From Manis javanica (lineage: Eukaryota; Chordata; Mammalia; Pholidota; Manidae): a stretch of DNA of 64,000 bases. Positions within the stretch are counted from its first letter, which is position 1. The number at the start of each line of letters is the position of its first letter. Both the position numbers and the translations under genes were made by a program. Shown here in pieces: positions 44,738 through 52,749 of this stretch. Location of the stretch: assembly GCF_040802235.1 (NCBI RefSeq), contig NC_133169.1, positions 47,375,034-47,439,033 of the forward strand, in the 5' to 3' direction. The notes beneath the pieces are model-generated. The model made no database searches. It saw only the letters and a list, made by a program, of their open reading frames with translations, and was not told the origin of the DNA.

Positions 44738-45058
44738 TGTCGCGTGCCCTGTCCTCGCCGGCAAGGACAGCATGCAACAACAGCAGGATTCTTCTGCAGA
44801 AAGCTTTATTCTTCAGCTCTTTGTGAAACAAATGAGTTGGGCAGGACCCAGAGGGGAAGGAGAGGCTTGCTTATATAGTTCTCATGCTCTGATCTGGTTG
44901 GTGCGGCTCCATATGCCTTATTAGCATAACCATTTGGTGGGTCTCATTGGTCCTTATGCCAAGGCGCAATTAGCATGTAGTTTAGTGGTGTGGGATGATT
45001 TGTCATTAGGAAGTTCGGGGCCTTCCGGCTGCCCTGCATTGGGCGCTATTTTCTGACA
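44738..45058 (-). repeat. 3' LTR of class II provirus
   Basis: 321 bp, minus strand TGTCAGAAAATAGC...GCGACA. It carries the same TATA (44877-44870) and AATAAA (44810-44805) signals as the 5' LTR. Three substitutions separate the LTRs by eye, plus the 13-bp indel at the U3 start. Confidence 0.93.
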
Positions 45059-45072
45059 TCTCCCCCTTTTTT
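45059..45072 (-). promoter_or_regulatory. Polypurine tract
   Basis: Minus-strand AAAAAAGGGGGAGA directly before the 3' LTR, the plus-strand primer of reverse transcription. Confidence 0.93.
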
Positions 45073-45472
45073 GTCTAACAGAAGCTCAAGGCGGAACTTG
45101 CCAGCAGAGGCGGAGACAGAGGCCTGACCTCCATCATACTTCCTGATGCCCCCTTTTTGGAGAGGGGTTCTGGGCATCTACCCCTATGCAGTCAGGCATG
45201 CCTCTCAGAGGGGTCCAAGACCTCTTGCAGTGCTTTGCCTCGCATCCTCTGGCTGGCGTTGGGACCGCTTGGTACAAAGGGTTTGGACCCTTTTTCTCAA
45301 CCCTCTTGCACCATGAGCTTCTTAAAGAAAGCTGTGATTAAGCATTGAGGTACTCGGGCCTGGTGCAGTGCCACATGGGCTCAGGGTGCAAGAGCTACCT
45401 CAAGCTAAAGCCGAGCTTCCTTCTTAAGCATGTTCAGCCACACTTGGGGAGAGGCGCCAACGTCTATCGCCA
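45073..45472 (-). other. Segment between env and polypurine tract
   Basis: About 400 bases without an open frame of note. In simple betaretroviruses this place often carries an RNA-export element, but I see no recognisable motif. A second purine run (AAAAAGGGGGCATC on the minus strand, near 45146-45160) lies here. Confidence 0.5.
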
Positions 45473-47179
45473 TTAGGGCTTGAGCAAGATCACCTTGTCC
45501 TGCTTATGTTGGTTGCGGAGTCTGCATAACAACCAGAGTAAGAGCATGAGACCTCCAAGCAGGAACACGCCCATCCCAGCCATGCCCGCCCACTCCTTGA
45601 CGTGGGAGAGAGCTCTGAGGAACCAGGAAGAGAGTCCTTCCGCTACGGAGATATCTAGACGGGTGGAGTTGATGTGGATAATTTCTCGCCGCAGCTCTTC
45701 TAGTGTCCCATCGAAGTCTTGGGACCAGTTTCCTGAAAGATACTGGGACAGGTCTCGTGACAGATTAGCTGCCCGTGTAAAATTTTTATATTGAATGCTA
45801 GTGATGCAGAGGGCACGATATTTCCGCTCACATTCCAATTGGGCCATTTGCCAGAGCACCTCTATTTGTTCCTCCACGAGATCTATGCGTTGATTGAGGA
45901 TCATTATTCCTCCTTTCAGTTTGCCATCAAGTGTGGACTGTTGGTCCAGGGCAGAAGCTACTGAGGCTGCAAGGTTATTGAGCTCTGTAGCCGATTTGAT
46001 GGAGGTGTCTAAAGCTATACCAGCGGCGGTGGCTGCGACCGCGGTCGCGGAGATCAGGAGCACTATGGCGGCTGTAACACCGAAATCGCGCCTTTCTCGA
46101 AACAGAGTCATGGTGTTAGGGGCGTCTACGGGAACAGGGACCCAACGGGGGATGCGGACTACCAAAGCATTGGTAAAGTTACGCACATCCCAACACTGAG
46201 ACAGAAAGCAGGTTTCATTGGAGCAGGAGTCAAAGATACTATTGGATAAGATAAACAGAAATGGGGGGTATACGCATACTGGAGAAGGTGGAAAAAGGGA
46301 ATTAGGTGACTCTGGACCTGATTTTGCTGAACACGTGTAGTTCTCGTTGTTATGGGTCATGATCATGTTCCAGTGTGCGCGCATGTGGTTATTCTCGCAC
46401 CAAAAGGTGATATTTTTTACACCGATTCCCCCACCCTGGAGGGCGGAAAAGGGGGAGAGGTCGGTACACGAGCCATTGACTCCACACAGCATCCATTTAT
46501 GGAAGGGGTTCATGCTCAGCTGCTGACGAAACTCGCCTTCGAGCACCTTTACTGGCCACCAAGCCTCATTGGCTGGCCGTCCCTCCATATCTGGGGAGAT
46601 GGTAAACTCCTGCCTCTCAGTTGCCCACGTTACTAAAGTTGACTGACAGTCAGTCCAGGGCCACAGCTCTCCCTCATAGTCGCCCACACAATGGGAGGCA
46701 TATTTGGGTTGATGAGGCCTGTCGGTGGAATTGTTCCTGGGAGAGTGTACAAATGTGCCATTGATCCAGAGAACCATCTGGTGGATAGTCATGTTCTTAT
46801 AGGGCGGGCTCCCTTCCTTATTAGGCCCTTCAAATTTAGCTGACATAACGGGGAGGCTACTGGCCTCTAGAATTATGTCACTGAACCATCCGTATTTCCT
46901 CCATTTCAGGGAGATACAGCCAGCTAGATTCTGAGTGGTGAAGCATAATGACCCATTAGTTACAAAGGATCGGTTTTCTCCCAGGGGAGCTACTAGGGTG
47001 TCTTTAACTAAGTAGGGCAAGTTCATACTAGCATTAGTAGTGAAAAAGCGCGGAAAAACGGCTGCATTGAAACGGACAGGCATAGGCTTAGGAAAGGCAG
47101 ACAGGATTCCCCATCTCAATACTCCCTGAGTCGGGGTCTCCAGTGTCAGGAGCAGGGTCAGGAGGTATAGCGAAGTCAT
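45473..47179 (-). CDS. env: Env glycoprotein, full length (endogenous)
   Basis: An open frame of 568 codons in the frame after pol, overlapping its end by 92 bases; it would be translated from a spliced RNA. Env mediates receptor binding and membrane fusion. Residues 1 to about 19 form a signal peptide. The surface subunit is rich in cysteines and N-glycosylation sites. A furin-type site RERR ends at residue 364, followed by a hydrophobic, alanine-rich fusion-peptide stretch (about 365-390). The transmembrane subunit has a heptad-rich region, a cysteine pair Cys450-X7-Cys458 (no C-X6-CC), and a membrane anchor at about 533-552 before a short tail. The cysteine pattern is that of MMTV/HML-type Env and not gammaretroviral Env. 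No break is seen. Function, if any, is unknown. Confidence 0.93.
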   Translation of the reverse strand: MTSLYLLTLLLTLETPTQGVLRWGILSAFPKPMPVRFNAAVFPRFFTTNASMNLPYLVKDTLVAPLGENRSFVTNGSLCFTTQNLAGCISLKWRKYGWFSDIILEASSLPVMSAKFEGPNKEGSPPYKNMTIHQMVLWINGTFVHSPRNNSTDRPHQPKYASHCVGDYEGELWPWTDCQSTLVTWATERQEFTISPDMEGRPANEAWWPVKVLEGEFRQQLSMNPFHKWMLCGVNGSCTDLSPFSALQGGGIGVKNITFWCENNHMRAHWNMIMTHNNENYTCSAKSGPESPNSLFPPSPVCVYPPFLFILSNSIFDSCSNETCFLSQCWDVRNFTNALVVRIPRWVPVPVDAPNTMTLFRERRDFGVTAAIVLLISATAVAATAAGIALDTSIKSATELNNLAASVASALDQQSTLDGKLKGGIMILNQRIDLVEEQIEVLWQMAQLECERKYRALCITSIQYKNFTRAANLSRDLSQYLSGNWSQDFDGTLEELRREIIHINSTRLDISVAEGLSSWFLRALSHVKEWAGMAGMGVFLLGGLMLLLWLLCRLRNQHKQDKVILLKP

Positions 47180-52245: not shown

Positions 52246-52395
52246 GGTGCCTCCTTATTTACAGAGAACCATCAACCATCATCCTAAAAAGCAGGGGCCT
52301 CTCGGAACTTACCCCTCCGGGCTTTCTTCTGACCTGCAGTTCTGAATCCTCTCCAGATGTCTGAAGGGTCCTCCCTGTGCCGGTGATGTTCTGGT

Positions 52396-52413
52396 TCCCG
52401 GGATTCGGCACCA
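52396..52413 (-). promoter_or_regulatory. Primer-binding site, tRNA-Phe-like
   Basis: Two bases after the 5' LTR the minus strand reads TGGTGCCGAATCCCGGGA, which fits the 3' end of phenylalanine tRNA at 17 of 18 positions from memory. Known exogenous betaretroviruses mostly use lysine tRNAs, so this is unusual. Another tRNA with similar end cannot be excluded. Confidence 0.75.
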
Positions 52414-52415
52414 CT

Positions 52416-52749
52416 TGTCGCGTGCCCTGTCCTCGCCAGCAAGAACAGCATGCAACAACAGCAGGATTCTTCTGCAGAAAGCTTTATTCTTCAGCTCTTT
52501 GTGAAACAAATGAGTTGGGCAGGACCCAGAGGGGAAGGAGAGGCTTGCTTATATAGTTCTCATGCTCTGACCTGGTTGGTGCGGCTCCATATGCCTTATT
52601 AGCATAACCATTTGGTGGGTCTCATTGGTCCTTATGCCAAGGCGCAATTAGCATGTAGTTTAGTGGTGTGGGATGATTTGTCATTAGGAAGTTCGGGGCC
52701 TTCCGGCTGCCCTGCATTGGGCGCTATTTTCTGAGCGCGGCTGCCAACA
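52416..52749 (-). repeat. 5' LTR of class II provirus
   Basis: 334 bp, minus strand TGTTGGCAGCCGCGCTCAGA...GCGACA. TATATAAG lies at 52555-52548 and the poly(A) signal AATAAA at 52488-52483 (minus orientation). Compared with the 3' LTR it has 13 extra bases after the initial TG. Confidence 0.93.

What the first reader, a model, noticed from the sequence alone, without database searches (positions are those of the whole stretch)
44738..52749. Young, nearly coding-complete class II provirus
Perfect 6-bp duplication, LTRs differing by only 3 substitutions, and open gag, pro and env. Such a copy is likely to be recent on an evolutionary scale and may be polymorphic in the host population. The lineage is not one I can name.
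Basis: partly seen in the sequence, partly recalled or inferred. Interest (0 to 1): 0.85.

Follow-up and report, generated by a model that had tools for sequence, protein, structure and literature searches.

The report
Malayan pangolin IAP-type endogenous retrovirus family
This is one damaged copy of a large, recently spreading retrovirus family in the Malayan pangolin genome, related to the A-particle viruses of mice and hamsters but still carrying an envelope gene in hundreds of copies, together with a short deleted partner element that must be copied with borrowed proteins.

Summary
Corrections: the 3' LTR also lacks 13 bp; pol has an in-frame stop in the integrase core; env ends 23 codons before the frame of most listed sister copies.

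Lineage: IAP type (closest named Pol: Chinese hamster IAP, 64%), with env and a Gag starting MGNAPS, as recalled for IAPE elements. It belongs to a large family: 1,001 5'LTR/PBS junctions, 491 env tags, 1,562 LTR tags. Of 29 LTR pairs read, 14 are identical and this one differs by three, so it is among the older ones sampled.

The window lies in one arm of an inverted duplication whose other arm carries the same provirus; the LTR differences, and probably the pol stop, predate it. Three older paralogous sites are empty with a single CAGGTC. The family also has a 3-kb partner (192 junctions, one shared deletion) that keeps leader, MA-CA gag, env end and LTRs, and must move in trans (inference). 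Polymorphism of this copy is untested.

The parts
44732..44737 (+). target-site duplication, left copy CAGGTC
44738..45058 (-). 3' LTR, 321 bp, lacking 13 bp near the U3 end that the 5' LTR and the sampled sister LTRs have
45059..45072 (-). polypurine tract AAAAAAGGGGGAGA
   Evidence: sequence; same tract before the 3' LTR of the sampled copies
45473..47188 (-). env frame (571 codons stop to stop, first Met at codon 4), furin-type RERR at residue 364, GP41-type TM; ends 23 codons short of the 594-codon frame of nearly all listed sister copies
47088..47657 (-). pol piece 2 (end of integrase core and IN DNA-binding domain)
47658..47660 (-). in-frame stop inside the integrase core; the mirror copy's pol frame ends at 692 codons, about the same place
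47661..49739 (-). pol piece 1 (RT with YMDD, thumb, RNase H, IN zinc domain, start of IN core)
49715..50665 (-). pro frame: dUTPase, aspartyl protease, G-patch
50488..52254 (-). gag frame, 588 codons stop to stop, first Met at codon 4 (MGNAPS...), p10, p24, two zinc knuckles
50629..50635 (-). slippery AAAAAAC in the gag/pro overlap
   Evidence: pattern match only
49721..49727 (-). candidate slippery GGGTTTT in the pro/pol overlap
   Evidence: pattern match only
52396..52413 (-). primer binding site TGGTGCCGAATCCCGGGA, tRNA-Phe type with one mismatch to the recalled tRNA end
52416..52749 (-). 5' LTR, 334 bp
52750..52755 (+). target-site duplication, right copy CAGGTC
45769..50797 (-). stretch absent from the short partner elements; this copy still has it
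1..64000 (.). arm of an inverted duplication; the other arm lies near C14:48.04-48.11 Mb (window 52756-52998 not compared)

Best explanation
The element is one copy of a high-copy, recently active IAP-type endogenous retrovirus of the Malayan pangolin that kept its env gene (IAPE-like). Shown: integration with a 6-bp duplication into a site that exists empty at paralogous places; about a thousand related proviral 5' ends; many sister copies with open gag, pol or env frames and identical LTRs; a 3-kb internally deleted partner with a single shared junction. Inferred: transcription from the LTR, frameshifting for Pro and Pol, assembly at the plasma membrane through a myristoylated Gag, priming by tRNA-Phe, spread by reinfection with Env and by retrotransposition, and mobilisation in trans of the short partner and of damaged copies. 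This copy inserted, gained its LTR differences and probably its pol stop, was then copied with its flanks in an inverted duplication, and is defective now.
For: Host: contig C3 is 217,799,483 bp, the contig length given for Manis javanica protein P0002. Lineage: closest named Pol is Chinese hamster IAP CHIAP34, 64%, then an IAP Pol record, 63%; Gag relatives named IgE-binding protein-like and hamster IAP; trees place it among IAP-type rows. Numbers: 1,001 PBS junctions, 491 env tags, 1,562 LTR tags, reversed controls 0. Without a stop: env 72 of 76, gag 71 of 74 scored; pol 883-codon frame in 59 of 64. Youth: 14 of 29 LTR pairs identical. Env constraint: in 14 copies picked by gag, 54 of 92 private changes alter or stop the protein, below the 0.71-0.77 expected. 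Short partner: same junction in 4 of 4 read and 192 matches genome-wide, exact TSD in 10 of 10. Empty sites: 3 of 3.
Against: No expression, particle or polymorphism data here. The search lists hold only the best-scoring copies, so the intact fractions are too high for the whole family; among 14 gag-chosen copies 4 have an env stop, 2 of these with an indel as well. The env constraint is modest (omega about 0.4-0.6; p from 8e-5 to 0.017 by mutation model). A host tRNA-Phe gene was not found: the one pattern match was not called a tRNA. No named IAPE env was available as reference. By subtraction about 300 PBS junctions are neither env-tagged nor short-form (if each tag goes with one junction), so the family is mixed. 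Six of 29 LTR pairs lack an exact 6-bp duplication.
Confidence: 0.85

Rival explanations
1. An env-less-style intracellular retrotransposon: amplification by retrotransposition only, env being a passenger not yet lost.
For: Identical-LTR copies are many, a trans-mobilised short form exists, and env has a stop in 4 of 14 gag-chosen copies.
Against: Gag begins MGNAPS, a myristoylation-type start; env private changes are depleted in amino-acid changes even in copies chosen by gag; 491 env tags.
Confidence: 0.3
2. An old pangolin family inherited from the ancestor shared with M. pentadactyla that merely looks young through gene conversion.
For: M. pentadactyla has six listed Gag relatives at 73-92%; conversion near the provirus is suggested by 0.14% divergence there against 0.61% over ten rows of the arms.
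Against: Exact TSDs that differ from site to site (23 of 29) and 14 of 29 identical LTR pairs at separate sites; env only 60% identical to the best M. pentadactyla record.
Confidence: 0.1
3. The inverted duplication and its second provirus are an assembly artefact (two haplotypes laid side by side).
For: Some stretches are 99.6-99.97% identical.
Against: 402 mismatches in 65,702 aligned host bases with stretches at 98.0-98.9%, more than allelic divergence would be expected to give (inference), no N in the pieces read, and three further, older copies of the flank on the same contig.
Confidence: 0.15

Closest known systems
Rodent intracisternal A-particle elements (mouse IAP, hamster CHIAP34)
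   Same: Pol 63-64% identical, dUTPase-protease-G-patch Pro, tRNA-Phe-type PBS (published for IAP and IAPE, PMC7472051 passages), a non-autonomous internally deleted form (PMC6466679 passages)
   Different: env present; Gag starts with a myristoylation-type sequence; host is a pangolin
IAPE (IAP elements with envelope) of mouse
   Same: env-bearing IAP type; PMC6466679 (passages) gives about 200 such copies in mouse
   Different: 491 env tags here; env 39-50% to the named rodent records listed; no named IAPE env compared
Mouse IAP 1-delta-1 elements
   Same: one deletion form, non-autonomous, spreading with proteins supplied in trans (PMC6466679, passages)
   Different: deletion of about 5 kb here, keeping a truncated Gag and no gag-pol fusion, against 1.9 kb
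ERV-Alpha-Mpen of Manis pentadactyla (PMC12584738)
   Same: apparently a tRNA-Phe PBS; dUTPase and G-patch; env; grouped with class II; 13 copies, LTR ages 1.41-3.47 My in that paper (results and discussion read)
   Different: sequence not compared here; far fewer copies; filed there under Alpharetrovirus by RT and said to lack the Cys-His box

Membership tests
IAPE-type (IAP with envelope) | Pol groups with IAP Pol | tested here: met
   tree lacks other class II genera as outgroups, deciding forks weakly supported
IAPE-type (IAP with envelope) | Pro with dUTPase, aspartyl protease and G-patch | tested here: met
IAPE-type (IAP with envelope) | env gene related to the env of rodent IAPE | tested here: inconclusive
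   named rodent records at 39-50%, none of them named IAPE
IAPE-type (IAP with envelope) | Gag N-terminal myristoylation signal (criterion recalled, after Ribet and colleagues) | tested here: met
   MGNAPS; sequence only
IAPE-type (IAP with envelope) | primer tRNA-Phe | tested here: inconclusive
   PBS fits the recalled tRNA-Phe 3' end with 0 or 1 mismatch; host gene not found
env-less IAP | env absent | tested here: not met
betaretrovirus with gamma-type env | CX6CC motif in TM | tested here: not met
   only a CX7C stretch found in TM by pattern, GP41 family match
ongoing invader (ERVi of PMC10435555) | identical LTRs and all genes intact | tested here: not met
   three substitutions, a 13-bp deletion and a pol stop in this copy
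ongoing invader (ERVi of PMC10435555) | insertional polymorphism | not testable with these tools
   no population reads

The most novel reading that the evidence does not exclude
A pangolin IAP-type family has become a genomic superspreader without giving up env: hundreds of env-bearing copies under selection for Env, still inserting, and accompanied by a trans-mobilised partner that keeps an open matrix-capsid Gag without nucleocapsid, which might interfere with or tax its helper.
Probability: 0.35. Interest if true: 0.7.

Novelty: new member of a known kind. Interest (0 to 1): 0.5.

Why it matters
The accepted pattern is that very large ERV families arise after env is lost (PMC4335370 and PMC10536682, passages, citing Magiorkinis 2012, which is not held). 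A family with 491 env tags and many identical LTR pairs in a Critically Endangered mammal makes that rule testable with ordinary resequencing data. The short partner gives an independent test of trans-mobilisation, and the duplicated provirus with empty paralogous sites gives a rare relative clock.

Tried and rejected
Rejected: single young provirus (1,001 junctions); recombinant with gamma-type env (no CX6CC); unique insertion (mirror copy with the same TSD). Env dN/dS of 0.26 from 21 copies chosen by env similarity was set aside as biased; copies chosen by gag gave the weaker figure used. In one search the end of the window's env is misaligned, so one search left that copy and the tail out (21 of 57 private changes non-synonymous in the 20 env-chosen copies, still biased). 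The syn/non count on short-element gag was misaligned and is not used; the script also missed the gag start of L124. The tRNA-Phe test failed: one search used a faulty pattern, one search found one match that ARAGORN and Rfam did not call a tRNA. The extent of the inverted duplication beyond about 20 kb outside the window was not measured. Rfam and ARAGORN found nothing in the window. Orthologous sites in other species: no genome to search.

Full report
What is there. The window holds a provirus on the minus strand. The 5' LTR is 52416-52749 and the 3' LTR 44738-45058; both outer ends carry CAGGTC. The LTRs differ by three substitutions, and the 3' LTR also lacks 13 bp that the 28 other sampled copies with a readable LTR pair possess. 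The frames carry the expected domains: gag (p10, p24, two zinc knuckles), pro (dUTPase, aspartyl protease, G-patch), pol in two pieces separated by a stop inside the integrase core, and env with a GP41-type TM. The best PDB matches by sequence are 7sr6 for pol piece 1, 9nnd (labelled endogenous retrovirus group K member 7) for env, and 8c9m and 6hwi for gag.

Host. The env matches Manis javanica records at 97-98%. The genome held for the window has a contig of exactly the length given for one of those records, 217,799,483 bp, and a 16,576-bp contig of mitochondrial size. The host is therefore taken as the Malayan pangolin.

Family. Whole-genome patterns gave 1,001 5'LTR/PBS junctions (up to 2 mismatches), 491 env tags and 1,562 LTR tags (up to 3), each with 0 in the reversed control. 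Protein searches score only the best candidates: env 76 of 1,469, 72 without a stop; gag 74 of 6,376, 71 without a stop; pol piece 1 64 of 12,026, 59 with an 883-codon frame. LTR pairs of 29 of the 75 other copies in the env list were fetched; 28 could be read. With the window copy that makes 29 pairs, the mirror copy described below among them: 14 with no mismatch, 3 with one, 6 with two, 2 with three, 3 with four, 1 with six. Exact 6-bp duplications were seen in 23 of those 29 (my count). The sample leans to intact copies because it came from the env list.

Short partner. Among the 100 exact LTR tags listed, which are on contig C1 only, 42 same-strand neighbour pairs formed: 21 spaced 7.65-7.72 kb, 19 spaced 2.60-2.70 kb, 2 others; 16 tags stayed unpaired. 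Insides of four short elements were read. All four have the leader and gag up to the position of window 50798, joined to the position of window 45768 in env, at the identical base. The join cuts gag inside the first zinc knuckle, so what is left is a matrix-capsid Gag with an open stretch of 477 codons in one and 486 in three. The junction matches 192 places in the genome, reversed control 0. LTRs of ten short elements were read: exact 6-bp duplications in ten of ten, though two of them share one duplication and lie 27 kb apart; LTR mismatches are 0, 0, 0, 0, 1, 1, 2, 3, 4, 6. A form without protease, polymerase and most of env that sits at many separate sites must have been copied in trans (inference).

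History of this copy. The window's host flanks that were compared (1-44731 and 52999-64000) have an inverted counterpart some 640 kb away on the same contig, and the provirus there has the same TSD. Over ten alignment rows the arms differ at 402 of 65,702 host bases, 0.61%, and at 0.14% in the three rows next to the provirus. Left out of that sum were four more collinear rows outside the window (109 mismatches in 8,716 bases) and secondary matches. The 5' LTRs of both copies are identical, the 3' LTRs differ by one base besides the deletion, and the three LTR differences are shared. The pol frame ends at 693 and 692 codons in the two copies. So the LTR differences, and very probably the stop, arose before the duplication or were shared by conversion; the 13-bp LTR deletion and the early env end are in the window copy and not in the mirror copy. 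Three further flank copies on the same contig, 90-95% identical, are empty with a single CAGGTC. The insertion thus lies between an older duplication (5-10% divergence) and the inverted one. LTR age: 2.1 My (0.4-6.3) at 2.2e-9 per site per year (recalled mammalian rate), or 0.32 My (0.07-0.93) at the 1.47e-8 with one-year generation used in PMC11825179 (passages).

Relationships. The closest named Pol is Chinese hamster IAP CHIAP34, 64%, then an IAP Pol record, 63%; unnamed records reach 66-68%, and one unnamed record 99%. Among named Gags six M. pentadactyla records lie at 73-92% and two Rattus records at 64% and 75% over the part aligned. In the Gag tree the window, two M. pentadactyla rows and three unnamed rows form a clade (100/100), which joins Rattus at 96/91 and, with other IAP-type rows, a larger set at 99/97. 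The Pol tree puts the window with unnamed rows near mouse and hamster IAP, with weaker support at the deciding forks. Both trees are midpoint-rooted, use rows that I picked from the lists and lack other class II genera. Env is 60% to the best M. pentadactyla record: 82% in TM, 63% in SU, and 27% in residues 241 to 300. That fits either fast SU change or env exchange; I did not separate the two.

How it works. The Gag start MGNAPS, the furin-type site and TM, and the deficit of amino-acid changes in env fit a virus that spreads with its envelope. In 14 copies taken from the gag list, none of them in the env list, 54 of 92 private changes alter the protein or stop it, against 71-77% expected, p from 8e-5 to 0.0095 depending on the transition bias, and up to 0.017 with strong CpG mutation. 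Four of these 14 have an env stop, two of them with an indel as well. Retrotransposition within the germ line must also occur, since the short partner moves (inference). The PBS exists in two forms: 20 with one mismatch to the recalled tRNA-Phe end and 8 perfect, among 28 found in 30 5' pieces. [quoted passage not shown]

What is in print. Searches 'pangolin / endogenous retrovirus', 'Manis javanica / retrovirus', 'pangolin / intracisternal', 'Manis javanica / transposable element / LTR' and 'pangolin / ERV / betaretrovir' showed no description of this family as such in the listings and in the five papers that I opened from them (PMC12584738, PMC10435555, PMC10776870, PMC4637884, PMC11825179); supplements could not be read, and two listings were cut (25 of 50, 30 of 37). 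[quoted passage not shown] PMC10435555 (sections 6 and 8, passages) lists the species among hosts of polymorphic, intact ERVs; whether that is this lineage I could not see. PMC12584738 (results, discussion) describes ERV-Alpha-Mpen in M. pentadactyla, apparently with a Phe PBS, and a homologous insertion in M. javanica; it is probably a sister lineage (inference).

Verdict. The copy itself is an ordinary, damaged member. The family, env-bearing, high-copy, recent and with a trans-mobilised partner, is the more interesting object and is a new member of a known kind.

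Noticed in passing
window 1-64000 and C14:48.02-48.13 Mb (L077-L087): The window is one arm of an inverted duplication, identity 98.0 to 99.97% by stretch; the other arm seems to hold a further L1-like stretch outside the part that mirrors the window.
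   Followed up: partly
C14:44687163-44687607, C14:42661702-42662146, C14:71833586-71834033 (L147-L149): Three older copies of the insertion site, 90-95% identical, empty with a single CAGGTC.
   Followed up: yes
genome-wide; first places on C1, L123-L126: Discrete 3-kb internally deleted partner element, 192 matches to one shared junction.
   Followed up: yes
C1:3843912-3846604 and C1:3870891-3873582: Two short elements 27 kb apart with the same TSD GATCTT and LTR pairs without mismatch, perhaps a local duplication.
   Followed up: no
C4:156172446-156174524: Another copy whose pol frame also ends at 693 codons, as in the window copy; its env is among the more distant ones, so a recurrent change is possible.
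   Followed up: no
C21:513630-1612118: Three env-open copies within 1.1 Mb of a 4.86-Mb contig; could be a sex-linked or heterochromatic scaffold.
   Followed up: no
PBS junctions: Two common PBS forms, AAA and AAT at the central position, in one young family.
   Followed up: partly
window 25718-31701: L1 element with tandem repeats of about 208 bp in front, ORF1-like stretch, endonuclease and RT frames.
   Followed up: no
window 5508-6482: Pieces of an olfactory receptor pseudogene on the minus strand.
   Followed up: no
window 56097-57180: Stretch with long overlapping frames on both strands, CpG-island-like by eye, then a (CA)25 run.
   Followed up: no
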